From Acetobacter okinawensis (GTDB taxonomy: Bacteria > Pseudomonadota > Alphaproteobacteria > Acetobacterales > Acetobacteraceae): a DNA stretch of 64,000 nucleotides. Shown one piece after another: positions 24,655-55,739 of the stretch. Position numbers and translations under genes: made by a program. Within the stretch, counting starts at the first letter, position 1; each line of letters begins with the position of its first letter. The notes below the pieces were generated by a model that was given only the letters and a program-made list of their open reading frames with translations, did no database searches and was not told where the DNA came from. Location: contig NZ_JOPJ01000008.1 of NCBI RefSeq assembly GCF_002153655.1, positions 1-64,000 of the forward strand, written 5' to 3'.

Positions 24655-24709
24655 AGCTTGGGTGACAGTGCATAGCCTGTAGCAGTATTGAGCAAAGTTC
24701 GAGAATAAC

Positions 24710-26965
24710 ATGACGCAAGCGGAAACAACTTCATCGGATGATTTGGTGTGGCTCAACTGTGTTGAGCCACTGGAGGACAAGGCAGGCCGCACACCGCATA
24801 GTGTGATGCTTCAATTGCCCAAAAAAGCGATCATTGCATCCGGTATTGATGATTCCGATAATAAAAAAAATAAAGCCAAACTCTTTCGTTTGACGATTTC
24901 CGAACAGGTCTCAGTGCCTTTTAGCGCCGAAGTGGATTTTTTTTCCTATTATCCTTTGGATATGGAAAAAATTCTGACAGGCGATAAAGGGCACACTGTT
25001 CGTGCTGTTATAGCGTTTTCTTCCATTCAGCCCGCTGGATCAGCAGAGCAGGCTAAAACGCAGCACTATATGAGCGGCTACCTAGCGGAACTTACAAGCC
25101 GTGGTATTGTTGTTGTATCTGAGAACAATCAAACAGATGATCTGTGCCGGTATTATTATCGCGCCCGTATAGCCTCTGTTCAGGAACTGCTGACACATTC
25201 CATGCGTCGATGCTGTTATGTCGGTGTGGATTTGAAGAATACCCAGACAGAAGAATCTTACCGCGAGATACAAGAGCAGGGCGACGCACAAAATAGCGCG
25301 GCAGGGGGAGGTTCTGGCACGTCGGATGCGGGCAAAGAGCAGAACTTGGGAACATTAAAAGAAGAGTTTAATGCGTTAACGCAGAAATCTCTCCAAAAAA
25401 GTCTGAATAATGATAGCATCGAAATGATGATTTCGTACTATTATTCTTTAATATCAGAAGAAAAAAGCAATATAAAAGCAGATGTGGATTTTTTATGGTT
25501 TGATGATAATAAATTTCGTCCATCTGTAAATATGGCAACGCAGTTTGATGAAACTGACGCCAATTTTTTGTCCCGGATGGGGTGCCGTTATGGTTATTAC
25601 TGGGTTGGTTACTTTCCCCCACTTGATGCTGAAAAAGACATAGAGCAGGATTCTGCAAAAGAATTTTATGAAAAAATCAGATTTACCAATTTATCACCAC
25701 AAAATCTTTCGAATAAAGAAATACCGGTATTTGAACTCTCTGTCGACCCACGTGGCAGTAAGCTAAACGGCGTTATTAAACTTGTGTCTGCTTCCAGGAA
25801 TGTACAGCAAAGCAAAGTAAAATTACAGAATTTGCGCGATATGTTTTTATCCATGTCTTCCCTTTTGATTATGGGAGGAAGTGAGGAACCTGTTGCTGAA
25901 GATGGTAGCGGCAAAGCTGAGCGAGACTATTTTGATTACTGGCGTTATAATGAAGAAATAAGTTTAACACTTCTGAGCGCAGCATGTATTGAGAATGCTG
26001 CTAACTTTATGAAGCAAAAATCAAAAAAAGATGCGAGCGTAGATGGTGAACATAAAAACCGTCCCATATCAGATGAGGAAATGGAGCAGTTAATAAAAGA
26101 GTCCAGAAGTGATATGGATAAAATAATTTCGGATGAATATAAGGCAAAAACACAATATATATGCGCTTTAAGGGAAAACGAGATTGATGCAAAATCTCTC
26201 GTTATAGAAGGTAAGCTCCTTATCTCCCCTTTTGCGGCGGAAAACTATACGCTCAAAGTTGGCCAGCCTTTTAAAATTTCTGTAGATACAAATAGTGATG
26301 ATGCTAATTTTCTAGGTAGTCTATTAGGCGATCAGTATGGTCATGCGTCTGATGAAAGTGGATTAACATTTGTTCCAATGCGAACAGAGTTAAAGCTGGT
26401 TTTTGTATTGCCAGAAGTGGCAGGCATACCGCTTAAGTTTAAGCCTGCAATGGAGCAGGGTTATTCAGAAAATTCATTGTCCATGACTGCACATGCCGTG
26501 ACTAAAAAAATGCAGGAGAACCCATTTTTTTGTTTGCCGCCTAATTTCAGGGATGTTTTCATTCCCGGTCTTATGCGCGCACAGGTTTGTGGTGGGGAGA
26601 ATGACGATGCTGTGCCAGTCATTGATAAATATGGGTATTATAAAATCAAATATCCGTTTCCTATTCATTTTCTTAATTCTACGTGTGATGAGGTGGGGGA
26701 AACATTGCCCGTGCCCCTGATTGCTTTTTCTGGTGGCTGCAAAACCAATGACAGCCCAGGATTGTATATTCCGCTGATTAATGGAACTGATGTCCTGGTT
26801 GCTTTTCAGGAGGGTAATCCAGATGCGCCATGTATTGTCGGCACAACTCCTGATATTGAAATTGGTGCGCAACAAAAAGCAATTTTTGCAAATGAAAGAC
26901 AAAGCATATTGCAAACCCACAGGGGGGTATCAATAAGAATGAACTACTCGAGAAAAAAAATATAG
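24710..26965 (+). CDS. T6SS spike protein VgrG (TssI) lacking the beta-helix needle
   Basis: 751 aa. The gp27-like base is recognisable (LFRLTISEQVSVPFSAEV near 50; QFDETDANFLSRMGCRYGYYW near 285) but carries a Gly/Ser-rich, charged insertion (about 185-250) and another around 400-490. The gp5 OB-fold follows (IDKYGYYKIKYPF, GLYIPLINGTDVLVAFQEGN, PDAPCIVG). The protein then stops about 40 residues later (QSILQTHRGVSIRM), just where the DUF2345/gp5-C needle normally begins. A needle-like sequence is instead at the C-terminus of the protein encoded at 27418-29514. Codon use becomes AT-richer from about 25.3 kb. Confidence 0.88.
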   Translation: MTQAETTSSDDLVWLNCVEPLEDKAGRTPHSVMLQLPKKAIIASGIDDSDNKKNKAKLFRLTISEQVSVPFSAEVDFFSYYPLDMEKILTGDKGHTVRAVIAFSSIQPAGSAEQAKTQHYMSGYLAELTSRGIVVVSENNQTDDLCRYYYRARIASVQELLTHSMRRCCYVGVDLKNTQTEESYREIQEQGDAQNSAAGGGSGTSDAGKEQNLGTLKEEFNALTQKSLQKSLNNDSIEMMISYYYSLISEEKSNIKADVDFLWFDDNKFRPSVNMATQFDETDANFLSRMGCRYGYYWVGYFPPLDAEKDIEQDSAKEFYEKIRFTNLSPQNLSNKEIPVFELSVDPRGSKLNGVIKLVSASRNVQQSKVKLQNLRDMFLSMSSLLIMGGSEEPVAEDGSGKAERDYFDYWRYNEEISLTLLSAACIENAANFMKQKSKKDASVDGEHKNRPISDEEMEQLIKESRSDMDKIISDEYKAKTQYICALRENEIDAKSLVIEGKLLISPFAAENYTLKVGQPFKISVDTNSDDANFLGSLLGDQYGHASDESGLTFVPMRTELKLVFVLPEVAGIPLKFKPAMEQGYSENSLSMTAHAVTKKMQENPFFCLPPNFRDVFIPGLMRAQVCGGENDDAVPVIDKYGYYKIKYPFPIHFLNSTCDEVGETLPVPLIAFSGGCKTNDSPGLYIPLINGTDVLVAFQEGNPDAPCIVGTTPDIEIGAQQKAIFANERQSILQTHRGVSIRMNYSRKKI

Positions 26966-27011
26966 GTGTTTATACTTATTGATCTTTATGTCTATGTTGT
27001 AGGAGTGTGCT

Positions 27012-27407
27012 ATGTCCAAACCTTTGCTAACAGGTAGTGAACTTAAATGTAGTTTTGGCGATACAACAAACCTGTTGTTTGTGACGCCTTTACCAATCTA
27101 CCCTACATGCGAGGGTAAACAGATTGCTCTAGACAACATGACCGTTCCTTATGTGAATATTAAAATGTTTGGTAAATGCAGCAGTCTAGTCAACCCACTG
27201 GTTGCATCTGCTACTGCGGCCGCTTCGGGAGTGCTCCAGCCGCAGGTCTGTACGCCAATGACAGTTGGTGCAAAGTGGGCGCCGGTTTCAACCGTTATGC
27301 GGTATGGTAATTGTTGTGTGGCTTTAACGACGAGTAAATGCAGGTGTATTTATCAGGGCGAGATATCTGTCATTAATCCTGTTCAAACACAAGTGACCAC
27401 CAAATAG
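27012..27407 (+). CDS. DUF4280 PAAR-like spike tip protein
   Basis: 131 aa. The pattern GSELKCSFGD near the start, MFGKCSS, NPLVASATAAASGVLQPQVC in the middle, and a Cys-rich end matches DUF4280, a PAAR-like family. Such proteins sharpen the VgrG tip and link cargo. About ten Cys could bind metal. It lies 46 bases after vgrG and 10 before the coiled-coil gene. With DUF2169 it forms a recognised cargo-loading neighbourhood. Confidence 0.85.
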   Translation: MSKPLLTGSELKCSFGDTTNLLFVTPLPIYPTCEGKQIALDNMTVPYVNIKMFGKCSSLVNPLVASATAAASGVLQPQVCTPMTVGAKWAPVSTVMRYGNCCVALTTSKCRCIYQGEISVINPVQTQVTTK

Positions 27408-27417
27408 AGGCAGAGTG

Positions 27418-29514
27418 ATGTCTGAAAATAATAAAAATGAAATAATACTTCCAGAAGTGGAAGATAGTTTTTCTATTTCTGTTCCTGTTCAGGAATCTCA
27501 TGGCAGTGCTCTGAGCTATGGGTATTATTTTCGTATGGGTATGCCTGACCCAAACGTAGAAGATAAACTGTCTTTGCCGAAAACAGGTGATTTAGGTAAG
27601 GAAATTAATAAATTTATACTTACCCCAGACGATAAAGAGGGGACAGAAAGTTATACAGAAAAATTTGGCGCATTACTCTATGCTTTAGATAAAGTTAATA
27701 TTGTATCTCCCAAAATAAATATGAGTGCAATGAATGTTGCAACAAAAGCATCACGGAATTTACAATACACATTTTTAAATGATAAGAAAAAAAACCGGGT
27801 TAGTAGCATAAAATACAGTACTCCCGGATTGGATTTTCGGTGGTCATTTGGGGCCGATGTAAAAATGGAAGCTGGGGCTAGTAAAAGTTTTGCACTTTCT
27901 GCCTCATCATCTACAAAATTAAGTACATCCTTGTCTTTGTCTGCCGCTATGGGGTTTGCCTGGAACCTTGCCGGTAAATTGAATTATTCATGGGGTTCAA
28001 ACCTTAAGAAAGTTCCGGGTGAATCTGATTCACAATCTGGAATAAGTAAGTATTTTTCTTTTACAACTGCCAGTAAAGATAATTGGTTTTTAAAAACCGG
28101 AAAGGATGCGAGGGAGCTTTCTGAGAATAAAACTATTATATCCGAGAAGTCTATAAAATTAATAGTTGATAAATTTGAGCCAAATATAGTAGAAGATGCA
28201 ATAATATTTAGGTATGCCAATACTTTAACGACTATTTTGGCTAGTTGCACATCTATTTTAGAGTTTGTGGTCTACACGAGCCTCCCTGTGTCTGTAAATA
28301 TTACTTCTGGAAGCAATGCGCGTTCACAAAGCGCAAATTCAAGCACAGAAAGGGCGGGTGCTTATGCAAAAAAAGCAGATGAAGAGGCCACAAAAGCAGA
28401 AAAAAATGGAGACAGCAATGCTGAGGCACTCAGAATAAAAGCTAATGAAAAAAAATCATACGTAAATGCGAAAAAAGCAGAAGAAAAAGCAACAAAATAT
28501 AAAAACAAAATGAATAAATCAGAAGGTGATGTAAAGAGAGTAGAGGATGAATTAGAAAAACTGGAAGAGGCAGAAAAAAAAGCTGAAGAAGAATCAAAAT
28601 CGCAAGATATAAAAGAACAAATAGCACTTGAAAAATTCAATGCGGCAGGAGGTAGAGCTTATACTCCAGAAGCTTGGGATAAGGATAAGCAACGTCAGAA
28701 AGCAGATTTAAAACGATCTGAATTAATTTCAGCGAGAAATAAAGTAAAAGAAAAAAAAGAGGAGTTGAACAGAAAGAAAGATGCTCTGCGTGAAAATAGA
28801 GACAATTATGATAAAGCAAAAGAAAATGCAGAGTCTCTAAAAGACAAAGGATACAATGAACAAAAAGAAAAAGAATACGATTTGGCTAATAAGAAAGAAT
28901 ATTATGCCCTTAAAGAGAAAGAAAAAGAAGATTTTAATTTTTCAGCAATAGAGCTCTCAGCTGCAGCCTCTGTTTTGCAAGCTACCTGTTTGGCTGTTTT
29001 GGCAATTTGTAGCACTCTACAGCAATCTTTTCGAGATAAAAAATATTCAGATCATCGGAAAAAATTAGATGAAGCAGCTTCAAAAGCACATCCAACAACT
29101 GGCATTGTCATAAATGAGGATAAAATTGAGATAATTAATGGAAAATCAAAAATTGAGGTTAAGGAAAATAAAATAGTAATTTCTGTAGGAAGTTCTCTCA
29201 TGACGCTTGATGACAAGGGTATTCATATTCAGGGTAGTAAATATACATGTAGTGCAACGGAAGTTATTACAATTTCTTCAGATAATATGATAAACATGAC
29301 TTCAGATAAGAATATTAATATCTCTAGTACTTCTGTTAAAGTAGCTGAAACAGGAAAAAAGGCTGAGAAGATTGATCTCGAAAAGTCTGCGTCTGCTGGC
29401 CAAACTATTGCTGATGTTGCCGAAGAGGCGCCTGGCTCAATGGACCAGCTGACTTCCAGTTCAAATGAGGCGACTGCTGGTGCAGCCAAATTGCAGCCCC
29501 CCTCAGGGGTATAA
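27418..29514 (+). CDS. Large coiled-coil protein with VgrG-type beta-helix tail; candidate T6SS effector or spike extension
   Basis: 698 aa, not recognised as a whole. Residues 1-about 260 are beta-rich and Ser-rich, with no known domain. A hydrophobic segment at about 270-295 is followed by a very long Lys/Glu-rich coiled coil (about 310-515) and a second hydrophobic segment (about 518-545). The region about 570-665 has repeated short strands (KIEIINGKSKIEVKENKI; DNMINMTSDKNINISSTSVK) like the DUF2345/gp5-C needle of VgrG. The start is ATG 27418, after GAGG; GTG 27415 is adjacent. The gene is strongly AT-rich compared with its surroundings, suggesting recent acquisition. Two membrane-like helices allow a pore-forming role, and the tail suggests it docks on the spike. 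No immunity gene is apparent. Confidence 0.65.
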   Translation: MSENNKNEIILPEVEDSFSISVPVQESHGSALSYGYYFRMGMPDPNVEDKLSLPKTGDLGKEINKFILTPDDKEGTESYTEKFGALLYALDKVNIVSPKINMSAMNVATKASRNLQYTFLNDKKKNRVSSIKYSTPGLDFRWSFGADVKMEAGASKSFALSASSSTKLSTSLSLSAAMGFAWNLAGKLNYSWGSNLKKVPGESDSQSGISKYFSFTTASKDNWFLKTGKDARELSENKTIISEKSIKLIVDKFEPNIVEDAIIFRYANTLTTILASCTSILEFVVYTSLPVSVNITSGSNARSQSANSSTERAGAYAKKADEEATKAEKNGDSNAEALRIKANEKKSYVNAKKAEEKATKYKNKMNKSEGDVKRVEDELEKLEEAEKKAEEESKSQDIKEQIALEKFNAAGGRAYTPEAWDKDKQRQKADLKRSELISARNKVKEKKEELNRKKDALRENRDNYDKAKENAESLKDKGYNEQKEKEYDLANKKEYYALKEKEKEDFNFSAIELSAAASVLQATCLAVLAICSTLQQSFRDKKYSDHRKKLDEAASKAHPTTGIVINEDKIEIINGKSKIEVKENKIVISVGSSLMTLDDKGIHIQGSKYTCSATEVITISSDNMINMTSDKNINISSTSVKVAETGKKAEKIDLEKSASAGQTIADVAEEAPGSMDQLTSSSNEATAGAAKLQPPSGV

Positions 29515-29577
29515 AAATATTCATACTTTTCATACTGTTATTTTTTTTGATCGTTCTGGTTTATTGGGTGAAATACA

Positions 29578-30924
29578 ATGAAAGTTATCAATGAAACACC
29601 ATGTAAGGTTACGGTTTTAGAGCGCAGCGCAGAAGATCAGCCGCCCGTTGTTATTGTCAAAGCGAGTTTTAACCTTATTCAGAATCTTCCTGCTCAACTG
29701 GCGGAGGATTGTTCTGATTTTTCTGCTGATTTACCTTATCAGGACGATATTGGGCGCAGTCTTGCTTGGTCAAATGACATGGAAAGATACAAGCCCAATT
29801 TTGATTTTCTTATTCTAGGATCTTTTTTTGCTCCGCAAGGCAACGCTCTGCCGCAATCCATGGTTGGCTTTCAGTTTGGCCCAATGGAAAAAAAAATGCG
29901 CATTATTGGTCCTCGCGTTGCAATGGTCGATGCCGAAGGGGAGTGGGAGGTGACGCCGCCAGCTCCGTTAGCTGAACTCCCTTTGCGTTGGGAGTTTAGT
30001 GCGGGGGGGCTGGATGACCCACGTAATCCGTTTGGCATGGGCATGGATGCGCAGCCCAGACCAGATAATTGCCCCGGAGCACTTTATACACTCCCGATGA
30101 TTGAGGGGGTAGATGATCCGCCATGGACCCCTGTACGCTCGGTTGAGCCTGTAAATATGGCACCAGAACCTGTTTTTTTTAATTCCAGACAAAAAAAAAT
30201 GGGAACAATAGACCGTCGCTGGATGTTGTTCCGTGCTCCGTTACCGCCTGTGGATTTTGACCCGAGTTCAGCCAATGCTGCACCTGAAGGGCAGCAGGCT
30301 GTGGGGGAGCCTTATGGTAACGAGGTGATGCGTTTTGCCAACATGCACCCTCAGCATCCTATTTTTGCTGCCTTATTACCCGAACAGATTCCTTTTGTTG
30401 CCGTGATCCCCGAAGGTGCGACACAGGCACAGGCTGTAGCGCTTAAGCTGGATACCATTGTTGCCCAGCCCGATCAGGAAAAGCTGACTATCTTATGGCG
30501 TGCTCCGTTGCCTGAGATAGAGAATAGAGACGATATAGAACTCCTTGTATGCGAAATGTGGCCTGTAGGTGGTAGCCGCCAACAGATGGCTGATGAATTT
30601 TTCACTAAAGTGGAAAAAGAAAAAAACGAACAATTAAGTCATGAAAAAATAGCAAAAGATAAAATCAATGAACAAATTAAAAAAAATCAGGAAGAACGCA
30701 TAAAGTCTGAGAACGAAAAAAATGTTGCAGAAGAACTTATTCTTAAAAAGAATATCGATGATATTTTGAAAGATATGGAAATTCCAGAAGATTTAAAAAA
30801 TACGGTCAGAAACGCGTCTGATACCGAAGGCATAATAGGTCCATTGGTCGAGCACGTGCAAGAATTGAAAGACGCATTGGATCGTGATTATGGGCATTTA
30901 TACAAGCCTTATTTGAAAGACTGA
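29578..30924 (+). CDS. DUF2169 T6SS cargo adaptor with coiled-coil extension
   Basis: 448 aa. Residues 1-about 340 match the DUF2169 pattern (INETPCKVTVLE, VIVKASFNL, DIGRSLAWSNDMERYKPN, MHPQHPIFAALLPEQ). This family is known as a T6SS adaptor that loads effectors onto VgrG/PAAR. Residues about 345-400 form a highly charged helix (Lys/Glu-rich) unlike the core, perhaps pairing with the coiled coil of the upstream protein. It ends the T6SS locus. The next gene, 258 bases on, is on the other strand. Confidence 0.85.
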   Translation: MKVINETPCKVTVLERSAEDQPPVVIVKASFNLIQNLPAQLAEDCSDFSADLPYQDDIGRSLAWSNDMERYKPNFDFLILGSFFAPQGNALPQSMVGFQFGPMEKKMRIIGPRVAMVDAEGEWEVTPPAPLAELPLRWEFSAGGLDDPRNPFGMGMDAQPRPDNCPGALYTLPMIEGVDDPPWTPVRSVEPVNMAPEPVFFNSRQKKMGTIDRRWMLFRAPLPPVDFDPSSANAAPEGQQAVGEPYGNEVMRFANMHPQHPIFAALLPEQIPFVAVIPEGATQAQAVALKLDTIVAQPDQEKLTILWRAPLPEIENRDDIELLVCEMWPVGGSRQQMADEFFTKVEKEKNEQLSHEKIAKDKINEQIKKNQEERIKSENEKNVAEELILKKNIDDILKDMEIPEDLKNTVRNASDTEGIIGPLVEHVQELKDALDRDYGHLYKPYLKD

Positions 30925-41639: not shown

Positions 41640-42917
41640 CTATGCGCCCGCCAGAGCCAGCCCTTCGGCTACGGAGACAAACTCCCCGCCCAGTTCCACC
41701 CTGTCTTCCCCAAAGCGGGAGGTAAACAGTGCGCGCACCGCAGGCACAAAGGATGTGCCGCCGGTCAGGAACACGCGGTCAATCTGCTCGGGGGCTAGTT
41801 CCGCCTCGCTCAGGGCTGCATCAATGCCTGCGCCAAGGCGGGCAATGTCGGGGGCGATCCAGCGTTCAAAATCCGCACGGTGGAGTGTGGTGTCAATCTC
41901 CAGCCCGGGCTGGGAGAAGTGCAGCCGCGCCGTGGGGCTGGAGGACAGCGCGCGCTTGGTGGCCGATACGGCGTTGTAGAGTTCCTGCCCACGCTGCTCA
42001 CGCACAAGCTCTATCAGGTTTTTCAGCTTGTCCGGTTCGGATGCGGTGCGGGCCACATCGGCTATCTCGTTCAGGATACGCGGCGTGCGCATGAGCGAGA
42101 GCCGGTGCCAGCGGCCCAGCGCGTGGTACCATTCAATCGGCACGGGCAGGGGTTCCCCGCCCATAATGCGGAATGTGCTCTCCCGCCCCAGAAAAGGGGC
42201 GACAACATTGTCAATAATCCGAAAATCAAACTGGTCTCCCGCCAGCCCCACGCCTGCATGGCCAAGGGGGCGGGTGGCGTTGTGGCTGCTCGGGTCAAAC
42301 CGCACGACCGAAAAATCGCTGGTGCCGCCGCCAAAGTCCCCCACAAGCACGGTGGCCGGGTGGTTCAGCCGCTGCATAAAGCGCCAGCCTGCGGCCTCTG
42401 GCTCCATCATGACATGGACATGCGCAAAGCCCGCCTGTGCAAAGGCTGCGCGCAGGCGTTCCTCGCCCAGCGCATCGTCCGCATTGTCGCCTACAAAATG
42501 GACTGGCCGGCCCACAGTGACATGGCATTGCGCGGGGGAGAGGCCGCCAAGGGCCATCAATTCCTGCAAAAAGGTGGCAATCAGGCTTTCCAGCGTCAGG
42601 CGCTGGCCGAACACCTGCGTCTCGCGGAAGCTGGCCTGCGCCAGATAGGACTTCATGGACATGATCAGCCGTGTTTCGGCCGGGTCGTCCAGATGGGCTT
42701 CTATGGCATGTGCGCCTACCGCACGGTGCGACACGCGCCGCCCCCCGTCCATCTCCTGCCATAGGGCGAGCAGCGTGCGGCATGTCTCGTTCGTGGTCGC
42801 GTCCGGGGTGGGGAAGTGGAGGGTCTGGATCGTACGATCCGGGCGCGCAATGACAATGACACTGTTGGTCGTGCCAAAATCAATACCAATACGGGTAGGG
42901 GCGGATAAGGAAGTCAT
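41640..42917 (-). CDS. Hsp70-family protein, YegD-like
   Basis: 425 aa from ATG 42917. The actin-like ATPase motifs are present: phosphate 1 (GIDFGTTNSVIVIA), phosphate 2 (VGDFGGGTSDFSVV) and adenosine (VFLTGGTSFVPAV). There is no substrate-binding domain, as in E. coli YegD. It lies 56 bases downstream of the YeeE/YedE pair, so it may be the last gene of the nanocompartment operon. A link to Fe-S or cysteine desulfurase function is only a guess. An upstream extension of the frame reads into the YedE gene and is unlikely. Confidence 0.9.
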   Translation of the reverse strand: MTSLSAPTRIGIDFGTTNSVIVIARPDRTIQTLHFPTPDATTNETCRTLLALWQEMDGGRRVSHRAVGAHAIEAHLDDPAETRLIMSMKSYLAQASFRETQVFGQRLTLESLIATFLQELMALGGLSPAQCHVTVGRPVHFVGDNADDALGEERLRAAFAQAGFAHVHVMMEPEAAGWRFMQRLNHPATVLVGDFGGGTSDFSVVRFDPSSHNATRPLGHAGVGLAGDQFDFRIIDNVVAPFLGRESTFRIMGGEPLPVPIEWYHALGRWHRLSLMRTPRILNEIADVARTASEPDKLKNLIELVREQRGQELYNAVSATKRALSSSPTARLHFSQPGLEIDTTLHRADFERWIAPDIARLGAGIDAALSEAELAPEQIDRVFLTGGTSFVPAVRALFTSRFGEDRVELGGEFVSVAEGLALAGA

Positions 42918-42973
42918 GACAAATGGAAAATACGGCGGGTGCGCCGTGCTGTCCATGCCCTGTGCGCCATATA

Positions 42974-43399
42974 TCAGGTGGTGCGGGTTATCTTCTGGCT
43001 TACCCAGCGCCCACCCAGCCAGCCAAGGGCTATGCAGGTGATGAGCACCACGGCTTTTACGCCATCCAGCCCAAGCAGCACCAGTGCGGGGCCGGGGCAG
43101 ACGCCGCTCAGCCCCCAGCCCGCACCAAACAGGACGGAGCCTGCAACCAGCCGCCCATCGGGGGGCCAGCGGCGGGGCCAGTGCAGCACCTGCCCGGCCA
43201 CAGTGTGCCCCCTGCGCCGCAACAGCCAGAAGCCGGGCAGGGTCATGGCCACCGCCCCACCCAGAACCCCGGCCAGAATGGGGTTCCAATGCCCCGATAT
43301 GTCCAGAAAGCCCAGAACATTAGCCGGGTCAGCCATACCGGACAGCCACAGCCCACCACCAAAAAGCAGCCCGCATGCAAACGCGATCAGGATTGTCAT
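42974..43399 (-). CDS. YeeE/YedE (DUF6691-type) sulfur transport subunit
   Basis: 141 aa, four hydrophobic helices. It starts at ATG 43399, overlapping the stop of the preceding YeeE gene (ATGA). It has the GMADPANVLGFLD motif early and GAGWGLSGVCPGPALV with a conserved Cys in the second half. This half-size family pairs with a YeeE partner to form a thiosulfate/sulfur-compound channel (family knowledge). Position after a cysteine desulfurase supports a sulfur role. Confidence 0.88.
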   Translation of the reverse strand: MTILIAFACGLLFGGGLWLSGMADPANVLGFLDISGHWNPILAGVLGGAVAMTLPGFWLLRRRGHTVAGQVLHWPRRWPPDGRLVAGSVLFGAGWGLSGVCPGPALVLLGLDGVKAVVLITCIALGWLGGRWVSQKITRTT

Positions 43400-43815
43400 A
43401 CCCCCCACCCCCACAGGCGGGAGAGCAGGACCGTGCCCACCGCAACACTCATAAAAATGGCAACAGCAATCAAGGAGCGGCCAGACCTGTTGCCCAGCCC
43501 GCAAACGCCATGCCCGCTGGTGCAGCCATTGGCCAGTGCTGTGCCAGCGCCAATCAGCAGCCCCGACGCCACAAGGCGGCCCCAGCCGGTCTGGGCAAAC
43601 AGGGGCGGCACCTCTGCCCCCAGCAGGCGGGCAAGGCCGCCGGTTGCCACCAGCCCTGCCAGCACACCCCACCGCCACCGTTGGGCAGGGTGGCGCAGGG
43701 CATTGCCCAGAATACCACTTACGCCCAGAATATGGCCTTCAAGCGCCATAAGGGCAACGGCGGCTGTGCCAATCAGCACGCCGCCGCCCAGTGCTGCCAG
43801 CCATGCCGCACTCAT
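43396..43815 (-). CDS. YeeE/YedE family sulfur transport subunit
   Basis: 139 aa, four hydrophobic helices, with the hallmark NGCTSGHGVCGLGNRSGRS, whose Cys residues relay sulfur in YeeE transporters. The gene starts three bases after the cysteine desulfurase stop and overlaps its partner by four bases. The two half-proteins together equal one full-length YeeE. Confidence 0.9.
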   Translation of the reverse strand: MSAAWLAALGGGVLIGTAAVALMALEGHILGVSGILGNALRHPAQRWRWGVLAGLVATGGLARLLGAEVPPLFAQTGWGRLVASGLLIGAGTALANGCTSGHGVCGLGNRSGRSLIAVAIFMSVAVGTVLLSRLWGWGV

Positions 43816-43818
43816 ACC

Positions 43819-45477
43819 CTAGCGCACCAGCCGCCCAAGGGCTGCCACCAGTGCATCCACATCGTCAAAGCTGTTATACAGGCCAAAGGATGCCCGTACC
43901 GTGGCCTCCACGCCAAACCGGCGCAGGGCTGGCTGGGCGCAGTGGTGGCCCGAGCGCGCGGCAATACCGTGCCGGTCAAGGTGTTTGGCAACATCGCTTA
44001 CGCTGTATCCGTCCACAATAAAGGAGAGCACGCTGGCCTTGGCCTGTGCGGTTCCAATAATACGCACTCCCGGTAGCCGGGTAAACAGCTCTGTTGCGTA
44101 GTCCAGCAGCGCATGTTCGTGCGCGGCAATGGCAGGCAGACCAATGCTCTGGAGGTAATCCACCGCAGCCCCCAGCCCTACGGCGCCAGCAATATCTGGC
44201 GTGCCAGCCTCAAACTTTTCTGGCAGGCCCTGGAACTCGGTATGTGCAAATGTGACATCGCGGATCATATGCCCACCGCCCTGCCACGGCGGCATGGCCT
44301 CCAGCAGGTGGCGTTTGCCATACAGGATGCCAATACCCGTTGGCCCGTAGATTTTGTGGCCCGAAAGAACCAGAAAATCCGCATCCAGTGCCGCCACGTT
44401 CAGGGGCAGGTGGGGGGAGGACTGGGCGGCATCTACCAGCACCGGCACCCCTGCCGCGTGCGAGAGCGCGATAATCTGCTCTATGGGGTTAATGGTGCCC
44501 AGCGCATTGGCCACATGCGTGACCGAGACAATTTTTGTGCGGCCGGAAAGGAGAGCCGCAAAATGGTCCAGCAGCAGTTCTCCCCGGTCATTGACCGGGG
44601 CAACCTTGAGCACCGCCCCTGTCTGGCGGGCCAGCAGCTGCCACGGCACAATATTGGCATGGTGCTCTATGGTGGTGATCAGAATTTCATCACCCGCGCC
44701 AATGTTGGCGCGGCCATAGCTTTGGGCCACAAGGTTTATGGCCTCTGTTGTGCCACGGACAAACACGATCTCCGCCGCCTCGCGCGCGCCAATAAAACGC
44801 TGGAGCTTGGTGCGGGCTCCTTCAAACGCATCGGTTGCGCGGGCGGCCAGCGTGTGGGCGGCACGGTGAATGTTGGAGTTGTCCCGCTCATAAAAAGCGG
44901 AGGTGGCATCTATAACGGCGCGGGGTTTCTGCGTTGTGGCGGCATTGTCCAGCCAGATCAGCTTATGGCCGTTCACGCGCTGGTGCAGGATGGGAAAATC
45001 CGCCTGAATGCGGGCAACGTCATACCCCCCCACACCGGGCCTTGCCGGGCTGTGGGCTGCGGCCTGTGCGGCGTCCGTGGCCACGGCTGAGTGGCGCAGA
45101 AAATACGGCACCGCCTGCTCAGGCCCGGCAGTGTGCGTGGCGGAGGGCAGGCCCGGCACGGCCGTTGCTGTGGGGGTGGCAGGGAGCGTGAACGCACCGC
45201 TAAAAAAGGGGGACGTGGCAGGCTCTTCCCACAGGGGGGGCTGCTCCTGCGTGGCATGTTGGGGAACCGGGTGCGTGGACCAGACAGGTTCGTAAATGGA
45301 GGCATCCGCACCAGAGGCAAAGGGTGTGTGCGCCTGCGCCCCTACGCCCTGTGCGGGCAGGGTAGGGTGTGGGGTGGCCGAAGCCACCCTTTGCCCCAGC
45401 ACATCCCGCAACGCCTGCTCTACTGCGCGCTGGTGGGCCAGACCCTGTGGGTCTGCTACTGTGTCAGGTGTAGTCAT
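43819..45477 (-). CDS. SufS-type cysteine desulfurase with disordered N-terminal cargo extension
   Basis: 552 aa. Residues about 152-552 are a group II cysteine desulfurase: the PLP Lys in LVLSGHKIYGPTG, the active-site Cys in ARSGHHCAQPAL and the HHAN motif. It removes sulfur from L-cysteine, giving alanine and a persulfide. The first 150 residues are rich in Ala, Pro, Thr and Ser, without predicted fold, and contain aromatic islands (ASIYEPVWS, PPLWEEP, SPFFSGAF, VPYFLRH). Such an extension is the known cargo-loading domain of encapsulated desulfurases. I chose ATG 45477, which overlaps the encapsulin 3' end by 14 bases; this tight coupling supports a shell-cargo pair. Confidence 0.93.
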   Translation of the reverse strand: MTTPDTVADPQGLAHQRAVEQALRDVLGQRVASATPHPTLPAQGVGAQAHTPFASGADASIYEPVWSTHPVPQHATQEQPPLWEEPATSPFFSGAFTLPATPTATAVPGLPSATHTAGPEQAVPYFLRHSAVATDAAQAAAHSPARPGVGGYDVARIQADFPILHQRVNGHKLIWLDNAATTQKPRAVIDATSAFYERDNSNIHRAAHTLAARATDAFEGARTKLQRFIGAREAAEIVFVRGTTEAINLVAQSYGRANIGAGDEILITTIEHHANIVPWQLLARQTGAVLKVAPVNDRGELLLDHFAALLSGRTKIVSVTHVANALGTINPIEQIIALSHAAGVPVLVDAAQSSPHLPLNVAALDADFLVLSGHKIYGPTGIGILYGKRHLLEAMPPWQGGGHMIRDVTFAHTEFQGLPEKFEAGTPDIAGAVGLGAAVDYLQSIGLPAIAAHEHALLDYATELFTRLPGVRIIGTAQAKASVLSFIVDGYSVSDVAKHLDRHGIAARSGHHCAQPALRRFGVEATVRASFGLYNSFDDVDALVAALGRLVR

Positions 45478-46828
45478 AATAGCTCCCGATCTGCACGTTA
45501 TCGAGCCGGGCAATAGCGTCTTCCACCAACACAGCGGCGGAGAAGTAGCGTGTAATCAGGTGCGATGCCACGGAGTGCTGGTCCGTGCCACTGTAACGGA
45601 CGGAAAGACCGGGTTCGACCTCGCCCGTGATCCCCGTATTGTGCAGGCCCACAACGCCCTGTTCTTCCTCGCCAACACGCAGGAGCAGGATGCTGGTCCG
45701 GCCATCGGGGGTGACGGGAATTTTGTCGGAAGGAACAAGCGGAATACCGCGCCACGTAATAAAGGGCGAGCCGAACAGCGTAATGGTCGGTGGCGGCACA
45801 CCACGGCGCGTGGCCTCCCGCCCAAAGGCCGCAATGGCTTTGGGGTGGGCAAGGAAAAAACCCGGTTTTTTCCACACTTTTGTCAGCAGTTCGTCCAGAT
45901 CATCAGGCGTGGGCGGGCCGCCGCGCGTGGGTACGCGCTGGGCAATTGCGGTCTCGTTCAGCAACCCGAATTCGGGGTTGTTGAGCAGTTCCCACTCCTC
46001 ACGCTCGCGGATAACGTCAATCACCACGCGCACCTGTTCGCGTAGCTGGTCAAACTCGTTGCTGTACAGGTCGGTAATGCGCGTATGGGTGCGCAGGACG
46101 GTCTGGATGGAGTGAATATAGTATTCGCGCGGGTGGTCCTGATAATCCACAAAAGTGGTGGGCAGTTTGGGCTCCCCATCCACACTGGACAGGACCTGAA
46201 TGGCGGCCTCTCCATACTGGTTGACGCCGGGCTGGCTGGTGGGGGTGAGCGCGCTTTGCAGCCACGGGCTACGCGCGACCTGCTCGGGGGAGAGGGTCAG
46301 CAGGGTGGTGGCGCCAACGGCCTGCAGGCCCTTGCCCTCTGGCCCGGCCGCCACAACAAAATGCTGCCCCGGCGCGGCAAACAGGTGGCGCACAAAGCGT
46401 GCGGCCCCGTTGCCTGTGCGCTGCTGCACCGCACCTGTGGCGACAAGGGCCAGAGTGTTCGCGGGCAGGGCAAATTCTGCGCCATCTGGCTGGGTGTGAC
46501 GTTCAAACTGGCCAGAAAGTTCCTGAAGCTGCGCTTCTGTGGCTTGCGAGAACCCGGGCAGGGCACGCAGGCTTTCGGGCACGGCATGTACGGTCGCACC
46601 TTCCCCTGTAAAGAGAACACCCCCAAAGCGGGAGGATACAAGGCGCCGCCGGTTAACACGGAAGACGCCGCCCCCCACATTGACCCACGGCAGCAGCAGA
46701 TGCAGCCAGCGCGGGCTGCGCTCAAGGTTTTGCACACGGGTGACATGGGCGGTGGAAAGCTGGCGGGCAGACAGGTTGCGGTCCAGCGCCGAGGCGCTGC
46801 TCACATGAACAGACTGTGATTCAGACAC
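45464..46828 (-). CDS. Family 2 encapsulin shell protein with cNMP-binding-like insert
   Basis: 454 aa from GTG 46828. The HK97-fold encapsulin core is clear: SPRWLHLLLPWVNV with FRVNRRR (about 38-62), then TTFVDYQDHPREYYIHSIQT, EEWELLNNPEFGLL, TRGGPPTPDDLDELL, FFLAHPKAIAAFGRE and ITRYFSAAVLVEDA. About 120 residues (roughly 80-200) lie between the N-arm and the TTFVDY segment. That insert has the Gly-spaced beta pattern of a cyclic-nucleotide-binding domain (LALVATGAVQQ, FAAPGQHFVVA). This is family 2B architecture. It self-assembles into a nanocompartment, presumably loaded with the desulfurase encoded next. Confidence 0.92.
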   Translation of the reverse strand: MSESQSVHVSSASALDRNLSARQLSTAHVTRVQNLERSPRWLHLLLPWVNVGGGVFRVNRRRLVSSRFGGVLFTGEGATVHAVPESLRALPGFSQATEAQLQELSGQFERHTQPDGAEFALPANTLALVATGAVQQRTGNGAARFVRHLFAAPGQHFVVAAGPEGKGLQAVGATTLLTLSPEQVARSPWLQSALTPTSQPGVNQYGEAAIQVLSSVDGEPKLPTTFVDYQDHPREYYIHSIQTVLRTHTRITDLYSNEFDQLREQVRVVIDVIREREEWELLNNPEFGLLNETAIAQRVPTRGGPPTPDDLDELLTKVWKKPGFFLAHPKAIAAFGREATRRGVPPPTITLFGSPFITWRGIPLVPSDKIPVTPDGRTSILLLRVGEEEQGVVGLHNTGITGEVEPGLSVRYSGTDQHSVASHLITRYFSAAVLVEDAIARLDNVQIGSYYDYT

Positions 46829-47067
46829 GGTAAATCGTCTTTCATATATTGGAAGTATTTAAAGGTCTTGTAATGGAAATGTTTTTTTCCGGCTCTGGTG
46901 GCCAATCAACATCGTTTTGTAAAAAGAACAGGAGAATACATGGTCATACTCCTTTTTAGCTTCGAATCAGATGGTCTGATTCGGTTTGCCTGTTCAGCCT
47001 AGCACCCATAAAAAGCAGGTCAACATTAAACTTTATGTCGGCGTTAAATATTTCATATCACTAAAAA

Positions 47068-47898
47068 TTATGGGTATATCAGGTAGTCAATGGAGGGAAA
47101 GGAGAGGTCCATTGTTAAAACAGGCCATGTGGTATGGCTGTTTATGTAGCGCGCAGGGTTGCCCGCCACAGCGGAGAACGCACGCACAGGTTTGACAACC
47201 ACAGCACCTGCGCCAATTTTGGCACCTTCTCCAATGTCTATGGGGCCAAGGACCTGCGTGCCCGGCCCCACCAGCGTGCCTTGCCCAACTGTGGGGTGGC
47301 GTTTGCCTGCCTGTTTGCCAGTGCCGCCCAGTGTGACATCACACATTATGGCAACATTGTTTTCCACCAATGCTGTTTCGCCAATAACAATGCCGCCGCC
47401 ATGGCCCAGAACAAGCCCGTGACCAAGGGTTGCCGCAGGGTGAATATCAATTCCTGTCACTTCGGATATGCGGCTTTGCAGGTATGATGCGCCCATGCGC
47501 TGTCCGTTTTGCCACAGTGCATGGGCCAGCCTGTATGCCTGCACGGCCAGAAAACCCTTGTTGTATAAAAAAAGTGCTGCGTAGTCGGTTTCTTCCGCGC
47601 TTCTGCTGTAATAGGCGTGCAGGTCCAGTGCCGCGCTGTTCAGGATGGCGGGAGCACCCTGCAAAAGATGGTGGCACGTTGCAAGCAGGGAGGCGGGGGG
47701 AATACTCAGGTCTCCCAGCCTGTGTGCAACAAGATGTGCAACCAGTGCGTCTGCCGTAGTGGGTGTGTGTGCCTGACCTGCAAGGGGGTAAGGTACTGCT
47801 TGGAGTTGCCGCAGCAGCGTGGCCCAGACCCGCTGGCTCCGCAGCGTGCTATCCGGGGTGGTGGCGCTCTGGTGCGGGCATAGCATTGTGTCTGCCAT
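47068..47898 (-). CDS. cysE: Serine O-acetyltransferase (CysE/EpsC-like)
   Basis: 276 aa from ATG 47898, with a GAGGGG ribosome-binding site. An N-terminal helical domain (about 10-140) is followed by a left-handed beta-helix of hexapeptide repeats (GIDIHPAATLGHGLVLGHG, IGETALVENNVAIM, GTLVGPGTQVLG, IGAGAVVVKP). The catalytic His/Asp region is in DIHPAATLGHG. It makes O-acetylserine for cysteine synthesis and so supplies the substrate pathway of the desulfurase. It is the first gene of the leftward operon, 239 bases before the encapsulin gene. Encapsulin-desulfurase loci commonly carry this gene. Confidence 0.93.
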   Translation of the reverse strand: MADTMLCPHQSATTPDSTLRSQRVWATLLRQLQAVPYPLAGQAHTPTTADALVAHLVAHRLGDLSIPPASLLATCHHLLQGAPAILNSAALDLHAYYSRSAEETDYAALFLYNKGFLAVQAYRLAHALWQNGQRMGASYLQSRISEVTGIDIHPAATLGHGLVLGHGGGIVIGETALVENNVAIMCDVTLGGTGKQAGKRHPTVGQGTLVGPGTQVLGPIDIGEGAKIGAGAVVVKPVRAFSAVAGNPARYINSHTTWPVLTMDLSFPSIDYLIYP

Positions 47899-55464: not shown

Positions 55465-55605
55465 TGCATGGGGTTCCTGCCTGTGGGGGCAGTGGGGCGG
55501 GTTGGGCCGCACCACGCCCGAAGGGGTGGAGCTGCGCGGGGCGGTCTGCCGGGGTATGGAAAACATGGCTGTGGACACACTCCTCCCTCGCGCATGGTTT
55601 GCGGG

Positions 55606-55677
55606 GTAGGAATCATCAGCCAACAGGGCGGTTCGATTCTGGGTGACCAAAATCCGGCAGAGTCCATTGCCATTTCC
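55606..55677 (-). ncRNA. Fluoride riboswitch (crcB motif)
   Basis: Read on the minus strand, it starts GGAAATGGCA, has an enlarged variable segment, then AACCGCC-CTGTT-GGCTGATGA, and ends TTCCTAC. GGAA pairs with TTCC (P1) and GCC pairs with GGC (P3); these and the conserved linkers match the crcB-motif consensus (GGAGAUGGCA...AACCGCC...GGCUGAUGANUCCUAC). It is in the leader of the usp-crcB operon, exactly where fluoride control is expected. The loop after AUGGCA is longer than usual. Confidence 0.88.
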
Positions 55678-55739
55678 AGTATGGAGAGAACGCGGCAGGC
55701 AAGTCAATCCGGCTTGTGGGGCGGCGTAACAAAACATAT

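What the first reader, a model, noticed from the sequence alone, without database searches (positions are those of the whole stretch)
41640..47898. Sulfur nanocompartment operon: encapsulin, cysteine desulfurase, serine acetyltransferase, YeeE/YedE and Hsp70
The overlapping shell and cargo genes, an upstream O-acetylserine-forming enzyme and downstream sulfur channel genes suggest one pathway. Sulfur enters, cysteine is made, and sulfur is then mobilised inside a protein shell. The shell has a cyclic-nucleotide-binding-like insert (family 2B form). As I recall the published classes, cysteine desulfurase is best known with insert-free family 2A shells, so the pairing is noteworthy. The YeeE/YedE pair and YegD-like Hsp70 extend the usual gene set.
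Basis: partly seen in the sequence, partly recalled or inferred. Interest (0 to 1): 0.85.

Follow-up and report, generated by a model that had tools for sequence, protein, structure and literature searches.

The report
Cysteine-desulfurase encapsulin operon in Acetobacter
An acetic acid bacterium carries a protein-shell system of a known type that should package a sulfur-releasing enzyme; what looks new is a tiny cysteine-ending leader peptide in front of the shell gene and the decay of the shell's supposed nucleotide-sensing domain.

Summary
The genes are real and where stated. The shell is a family 2B encapsulin overlapping a SufS-type desulfurase cargo, with a second cysE upstream and a YeeE/DUF6691 pair downstream, in an Acetobacter close to A. 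okinawensis.

The headline novelty fails. Family 2B shells with cysteine desulfurase were counted in 2021 (199 operons, 9 phyla), with serine acetyltransferase an enriched accessory. The Hsp70 is a resident neighbour: found in none of 80 related loci as fetched, yet in 30 of 37 genus genomes without the shell.

Three things look unreported in the library searched. (1) A leader mini-ORF ending Arg-Cys(-Cys)-stop precedes the shell gene in 11 of 12 Acetobacter loci; shuffles give about 0.04%. (2) The 'cyclic-nucleotide' insert is decayed in Acetobacter (no Pfam match in 5 of 5, lost cassette residues, protein change 7-23 times faster than the body) and cleanly absent in Asaia prunellae, nested in the same clade. 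(3) A YeeE half lies in 43 of 80 related loci, keeping the cysteine expected from published work. Best reading: a sulfur-handling store, probably cysteine-responsive, not gated by cyclic nucleotides.

The parts
47068..47898 (-). cysE-type serine O-acetyltransferase (extra copy; a stronger one lies elsewhere in the genome)
   Evidence: PF06426, hexapeptide repeats; PRK11132 216 bits, under its cut-off of 397; second copy 332 bits on contig C1
46996..47023 (-). conserved promoter-like block TTGACC-N16-TAGGCT before the leader
   Evidence: conserved in the leader alignment; not called by the consensus scan, so only suggestive
46963..46983 (-). short inverted repeat CGAATCAG-ACCAT-CTGATTCG at the start of the leader
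   Evidence: kept in most of 7 close relatives but no covariation support
46906..46941 (-). leader mini-ORF MYSPVLFTKRC-stop with Shine-Dalgarno AAAAAGGAG
45464..46828 (-). family 2B encapsulin shell protein (HK97 body with insert)
   Evidence: NF041163 and PF19307; solved 2B relatives 9bje, 9bix, 9bhu and 2A relatives 8t6r, 6x8m
46226..46642 (-). decayed insert of the shell (about residues 63-201), derived from a cyclic-nucleotide-binding-like domain
43819..45477 (-). SufS-type cysteine desulfurase cargo with N-terminal extension (AVEQALRDVLGQ and PYFL stretches)
   Evidence: published motifs
43396..43815 (-). YeeE half (PmpA/YedE1-like by position; Cys98)
   Evidence: PF04143 C-terminal part, 15.2 bits, under the cut-off of 27; Cys98 invariant in 46 of 46 aligned relatives
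42974..43399 (-). DUF6691 half (PmpB/YedE2-like by position; Cys101)
   Evidence: PF20398 111.2 bits; Cys101 in 44 of 44 rows that cover it
41640..42917 (-). YegD-like Hsp70: resident neighbour, NOT counted as part of the system

Best explanation
This is a family 2B encapsulin of the cysteine-desulfurase type. Shown by sequence: shell, desulfurase cargo with a loading-type N-terminal extension, second cysE, YeeE/DUF6691 pair, and a conserved leader mini-ORF. Inferred from studied relatives: the HK97 body forms a small shell, the cargo is loaded by its disordered N-terminus, cysteine enters through pores and is split to alanine plus persulfide or zero-valent sulfur held inside; the extra CysE feeds cysteine synthesis, and the YeeE/DUF6691 pair brings in zero-valent sulfur. 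The insert is a relic of a ligand-binding domain and does not sense cyclic nucleotides. In Acetobacter the shell, cargo and transporter genes sit behind a dedicated leader whose ribosome must read Arg-Cys(-Cys)-stop, so translation of the leader probably reports cysteine supply to the genes downstream. The direction and physical means of that control are not shown. The Hsp70 is an unrelated neighbour.
For: Family models. Conserved block in Acetobacter; desulfurase in 78 of 80, cysE in 72, YeeE half in 43, DUF6691 in 42 of 80 related loci. Cargo motif [YF][YF]FL or PYFL in 76 of 79 desulfurases read. Published: the N-terminal domain loads the cargo and the shell raises its activity (passages of PMC8049743); S. 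elongatus shell and cargo rise on sulfur starvation; desulfurase encapsulins named as sulfur stores. Leader mini-ORF in 11 of 12 Acetobacter loci against 0.04% in shuffles, 10 of 10 named Acetobacter shell upstreams against 0 of 68 other shell upstreams, and not found elsewhere in 49 genus genomes by profile. Insert decay and absence in Asaia. YedE1E2 imports zero-valent sulfur and needs one Cys in each half (passages of PMC10812762); both Cys conserved here.
Against: No expression, binding or sulfur measurement exists for this system. The 2A-cargo model falls under its cut-off. RNA folding gives no attenuator: no terminator-like site, no covariation, fold energies like shuffles. One of 12 Acetobacter loci (G530) lacks the mini-ORF. 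The middle of the mini-ORF is variable. The insert still shows some purifying constraint (dN/dS about 0.16-0.29), so it may keep a structural role. YeeE/DUF6691 is not seen in 37-38 of 80 loci (some are cut by contig ends), its chance rate was not measured, and the window's YeeE half scores under the Pfam cut-off. The Asaia desulfurase lacks the PYFL motif.
Confidence: 0.6

Rival explanations
1. One reading: a cyclic-nucleotide-gated shell whose operon includes the Hsp70 as assembly or protection factor.
For: The insert shares origin with cyclic-nucleotide-binding-like inserts; the Hsp70 start lies 56 nt beyond DUF6691 on the same strand in the window and about 6.4 kb beyond it in three other Acetobacter.
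Against: Hsp70 in 0 of 80 related loci as fetched and in 30 of 37 shell-less genus genomes; shell-less G541 keeps tetR and Hsp70 6.6 kb apart. PF00027 absent in 5 of 5 Acetobacter shells. 2B inserts reported not to bind cyclic nucleotides.
Confidence: 0.05
2. The conserved CGATGTTG before the shell gene is a DNA or RNA site (operator, processing or small-RNA site) and the mini-ORF is incidental.
For: CGATGTTG is identical in 10 of 10 aligned leaders; a hairpin precedes it.
Against: Shine-Dalgarno, start and in-frame stop are kept; in three species the stop moves by one codon while Cys-Cys-stop is formed; A. suratthaniensis has an unrelated peptide with the same ending. No RNA structure support.
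Confidence: 0.2
3. YeeE/DUF6691 is a general sulfur-detoxification pair that only happens to lie near the shell.
For: A YeeE-YedE-PDO2 detoxification operon is known elsewhere (passage of PMC7315123); in Methylobacterium brachythecii (L116, the one locus examined) the pair sits beside a BLH-phosphatase-domain gene.
Against: In Acetobacter it directly follows the cargo gene (3-nt gap, then an overlap); near the shell it occurs in several arrangements (same strand downstream, divergent upstream, downstream on the other strand), and DUF6691 lies near one 2A shell (L064). Chance rate not measured.
Confidence: 0.25
4. The shell serves sulfur delivery or redox balance (iron-sulfur or thiol supply) and not storage.
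For: SufS-type cargo; Andreas and Giessen propose directed delivery to rhodaneses and redox homeostasis.
Against: Desulfurase encapsulins are named as sulfur stores in the 2025 paper. I did not look for a rhodanese in the Acetobacter loci.
Confidence: 0.25

Closest known systems
Family 2B encapsulin operons with cysteine desulfurase (Andreas and Giessen 2021, PMC8346489; annotated example Kitasatospora NZ_CP108290.1)
   Same: 2B shell overlapping a SufS-type desulfurase gene; serine acetyltransferase an enriched accessory of desulfurase operons.
   Different: Acetobacter insert no longer recognised by Pfam; cysteine-ending leader mini-ORF; YeeE/DUF6691 in line with the cargo gene.
SrpI-CyD family 2A encapsulin of Synechococcus elongatus (PMC8049743)
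   Same: Desulfurase cargo with N-terminal loading domain and YFL motif; serine acetyltransferase next to the shell gene; shell body about 59% identical.
   Different: No insert in SrpI; cysteine synthase and a rhodanese-like gene are neighbours there.
YedE1E2 / PmpAB zero-valent sulfur importer (PMC10812762, PMC11582611)
   Same: Two short halves matching the two ends of full-length YeeE, one conserved Cys each.
   Different: Placed in line with an encapsulin cargo gene; transport not tested.
Cysteine leader-peptide attenuators (mycobacterial poly-cysteine leaders: recalled, not in the library searched)
   Same: Cys codons in a short ORF before a sulfur-related operon.
   Different: One or two Cys codons directly before the stop; no terminator or alternative structure found.
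Family 1 linocin-type DyP encapsulin of acetic acid bacteria (PMC8776678, passages)
   Same: An encapsulin reported from Acetobacter.
   Different: Another shell family with a peroxidase cargo; the passages read do not mention this one.

Membership tests
Family 2 encapsulin | HK97-type SrpI-like shell body | tested here: met
   PF19307 360.4 bits, cut-off 22.8
Family 2 encapsulin | assembly into a closed shell | not testable with these tools
   needs expression and cryo-EM; structure prediction was off
Family 2B subtype | insert in the shell at the E-loop position | tested here: met
   NF041163 529.6 over cut-off 400; insert aligned with other 2B inserts
Family 2B subtype | insert recognisable as cNMP-binding domain (PF00027) | tested here: not met
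   no match at E<=5, in 5 of 5 Acetobacter shells; matches over cut-off in 5 of 5 other 2B shells. Homology still shown by profile. Membership in 2B rests on the insert's origin and the NCBI model.
Desulfurase-type cargo | SufS-like domain (PF00266) | tested here: met
   TIGR01979 over cut-off
Desulfurase-type cargo | N-terminal extension with the published motifs | tested here: met
   about 150-residue extension with AVPYFLRH and AVEQALRDVLGQ against AASPYYFLDG and LARLANEFFS; the second likeness is by eye only
Desulfurase-type cargo | NCBI 2A-cargo model NF041166 | tested here: not met
   765.8 against a cut-off of 800; the model is named for 2A cargo
YedE1E2 / PmpAB transporter | two halves, each with its conserved Cys | tested here: met
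   the YeeE half itself scores 15.2, under the PF04143 cut-off of 27
YedE1E2 / PmpAB transporter | transport of zero-valent sulfur | not testable with these tools
   needs an uptake assay
Cysteine leader-peptide attenuator | short ORF with Cys codons, conserved before the operon | tested here: met
Cysteine leader-peptide attenuator | terminator or alternative RNA structures downstream | tested here: not met
Cysteine leader-peptide attenuator | response to cysteine | not testable with these tools
   needs a reporter assay

The most novel reading that the evidence does not exclude
In Acetobacter, production of a sulfur nanocompartment is controlled by a dedicated cysteine-reading leader peptide ending Arg-Cys(-Cys)-stop, and this sensor goes with a shell whose ancestral ligand-binding insert has decayed (and was lost outright in Asaia prunellae): sensing at the gene in place of gating at the pore.
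Probability: 0.35. Interest if true: 0.7.

Novelty: new variant of a known kind. Interest (0 to 1): 0.45.

Why it matters
What the family 2B insert does is an open question in print. One clade offers a natural series around a shared shell body: a Pfam-recognisable insert (Methylobacterium, Xanthobacter), a decayed insert (Acetobacter) and none (Asaia prunellae). Comparing pores, loading and activity across the three would test the insert's role directly. The leader gives a simple, testable link from cysteine supply to encapsulin expression, and the transporter neighbours suggest where the sulfur comes from.

Tried and rejected
Viral contigs: 8 stretches matched a pattern, none encodes a relative of the shell. 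Rfam: no family at the locus at E<=1. A pairing of the mini-ORF end with the region before the shell start was tried and dropped: no covariation, broken in several species, folds like shuffles. Other copies of the leader: besides 10 shell loci (E<=3.1e-11) the next best match in 49 genus genomes has E 0.017; in 397 family genomes only the window's own is strong, the next best E 0.006 (that draw held few other shell genomes). A mini-ORF ending in VC lies about 350 nt before the sulfite-reductase gene; it was not compared across species and I draw nothing from it. Empty-site comparison: the 6.6 kb between tetR and Hsp70 in shell-less G541 has no blastn match to the DNA beyond the block in the window, A. 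syzygii or A. lovaniensis, so no exact insertion or deletion point was found. Whether 2B as a whole is a natural group: the unrooted tree does not decide it. PDB search with the YeeE half: one meaningless match at E 1.3. Paper search 'encapsulin' with 'thiosulfate': three papers, judged off topic from titles and abstract openings.
Full report
Observation. The genes exist as described, all on the minus strand: cysE-type acetyltransferase 47068-47898, shell 45464-46828, desulfurase 43819-45477 overlapping the shell gene by 14 nt, YeeE half 43396-43815, DUF6691 half 42974-43399, Hsp70 41640-42917. The shell passes the family 2B model (529.6, cut-off 400) and the desulfurase the SufS model. It is the only SrpI-like gene found in the genome. 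The window's genome shares its genus code with genomes whose contigs match named Acetobacter records; A. okinawensis is 98% identical over the shell. The species was not determined.

What is already known. Passages of Andreas and Giessen 2021 (PMC8346489) report 199 family 2B operons with cysteine desulfurase in 9 phyla and name serine O-acetyltransferases and rhodaneses as the most enriched accessories of desulfurase operons. RefSeq annotates the same pair in Kitasatospora. Passages of PMC12407261 state that the 2B insert does not bind cyclic nucleotides and that its function is unknown. Paper searches: 'encapsulin' with 'YeeE' gave no paper; 'encapsulin' with 'leader peptide' gave four, judged off topic from titles and abstract openings; 'encapsulin' with 'Acetobacter' gave two, one of which, in the passages read, describes another shell family with a peroxidase. 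Only open-licence papers are held, so this is weak evidence of absence.

Distribution. The SrpI-like shell is in 12 of 49 genus genomes and over the cut-off in 4 of 385 genomes sampled from the class, the window's included in both. A scan with seven shells found 116 relatives; the best 80 were kept: Acetobacter, Asaia prunellae, many Methylobacterium and Methylorubrum, Xanthobacter, Aquabacter, Aureimonas, Chelatococcus-like bacteria, a Beijerinckiaceae MAG and a Verrucomicrobia MAG. By tblastn at E<=1e-6, within flanks of at most 7 kb, these 80 hold a desulfurase in 78 (in the other two the contig ends close to the shell), cysE in 72, YeeE half in 43, DUF6691 in 42, Hsp70 in 0. Several loci are cut by contig ends, so absences are upper bounds; most of the 80 are Methylobacterium, so they are not independent.

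Hsp70. It is in 40 of 49 genus genomes: 10 of the 12 with the shell and 30 of the 37 without (recount 101). In shell-less G541 the order shc-tetR-6.6 kb-Hsp70 is kept. In A. syzygii, A. lovaniensis and A. fabarum it lies about 6.4 kb beyond DUF6691, outside the stretches counted above. In A. okinawensis it lies on another contig and matches in two pieces. So it is a resident flank that abuts the block in the window. The name shc (squalene-hopene cyclase) is recalled, not tested.

The insert. In the shell alignment the body is strongly conserved while the insert diverges, and Acetobacter lacks four residues where other 2B inserts have GDYFGDDDL or similar; that this is the nucleotide-binding cassette is recalled. 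PF00027 passes its cut-off in 5 of 5 non-Acetobacter 2B shells scanned and is absent at E<=5 in 5 of 5 Acetobacter shells. Against the window, insert dN is 6.9 to 22.9 times body dN in 10 of 11 comparisons (in the eleventh body dN is zero); in the five pairs with insert dS under 1, insert dN/dS is 0.16-0.29 and body dN/dS 0-0.04. So the insert is under weaker, but still purifying, constraint. Profile comparison confirms common origin with the recognisable inserts (99.2%, E 3.1e-19). In Asaia prunellae the shell is a clean 324-residue ORF without the insert. A body-only tree puts it beside the 12 Acetobacter shells (100/99) inside the 2B-desulfurase clade (99/99), which makes loss the simplest reading. 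One row of that clade (the Verrucomicrobia MAG) is cut off and its insert unknown. Asaia prunellae was the only near relative without the insert in 397 family genomes and rests on one draft assembly.

The leader. Between cysE and the shell gene lies a mini-ORF with a strong Shine-Dalgarno. It reads MYSPVLFTKRC in the window, the same or similar peptides (such as MYPTVLFTNRC and MYPILLFINRC) in six relatives, MVYPVR...RCC-type peptides in A. persici, A. orientalis and A. thailandicus (TTG start in the last), and an unrelated peptide ending DRC in A. suratthaniensis; G530 has none. A Shine-Dalgarno-preceded ORF of 6-40 codons ending RC or RCC occurs in 11 of 12 loci; dinucleotide shuffles (400 per locus) give 0.04% on average, and 1.1% for any ending in C. 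The 12 loci are related, so these are not 11 independent events; I count about three forms. In the 80 named loci 149 upstream regions were scanned (78 of shell genes, 71 of cysE): 10 of 10 Acetobacter shell upstreams, 0 of 68 other shell upstreams and 1 of 71 cysE upstreams had a mini-ORF ending in Cys. A sequence-only profile of the leader matches 10 of 49 genus genomes at E<=3.1e-11, all at shell loci; the next best match has E 0.017 (strict filters). It misses the two divergent shell loci, G530 and A. suratthaniensis. A looser DNA pattern matched 44 of 49 genomes, mostly by chance, and its list was cut. In the RCC species the stop has moved by one codon while Cys-Cys-stop is kept, which speaks for coding. 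RNA structure tests gave no support and no terminator-like site was found. So the peptide is the conserved object and the mechanism is open: ribosome stalling, translational coupling or Rho-dependent termination are all possible.

Transporter pair. Each half keeps one invariant cysteine (Cys98 in 46 of 46 aligned rows; Cys101 in 44 of 44 rows that cover it). Passages of PMC10812762 report that YedE1E2 of Cupriavidus imports zero-valent sulfur, works in one direction, and needs YedE1 Cys104 and YedE2 Cys101. Passages of PMC11582611 match PmpA and PmpB to the C- and N-terminal halves of full-length YeeE, which fits the Pfam positions found here, though the window's YeeE half scores under the Pfam cut-off. 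Transport by the window's pair is inferred.

Metabolic setting. The genome has a stronger cysE elsewhere (332 against 216 bits) and a gene cluster that reads as sulfate assimilation around a sulfite-reductase-type gene (most names read from sequence, not tested). So the operon's cysE is an extra copy and the system is unlikely to be the cell's only sulfur route.

Verdict. A new variant of a known kind.

Noticed in passing
L173:1011-1985 (Asaia prunellae): A shell of the 2B-desulfurase clade without its insert, in frame; the overlapping desulfurase also lacks the PYFL motif. By the published definition it would be filed as 2A although it nests in a 2B clade.
   Followed up: partly
L061 (G166:C1:487000-504000): A 0.63-Mb single-contig alphaproteobacterial genome (88% complete by the listing) keeps a 2B shell and a desulfurase on a very long branch; a store of sulfur in so reduced a genome would be odd.
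   Followed up: no
window 55600-55680 minus: Fluoride riboswitch, 42.9 bits over the gathering score of 34.
   Followed up: no
window about 24700-30900: Low-GC stretch (0.38-0.46 against mostly 0.50-0.65 around it) with large ORFs that look like VgrG and DUF2169-type secretion genes by eye (not tested against models).
   Followed up: no
L191:5291-5640 (own genome, contig C107): A mini-ORF ending PTVC lies before the sulfite-reductase-type gene; could be chance, not compared across species.
   Followed up: no
L116:4736-5173 (Methylobacterium brachythecii): A BLH-phosphatase-domain gene (PF04273) lies between the YeeE/DUF6691 pair and cysE-shell-desulfurase.
   Followed up: no
L064 (G076:C154): DUF6691 also lies just upstream of a 2A shell with desulfurase, next to two cysE-like matches.
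   Followed up: no
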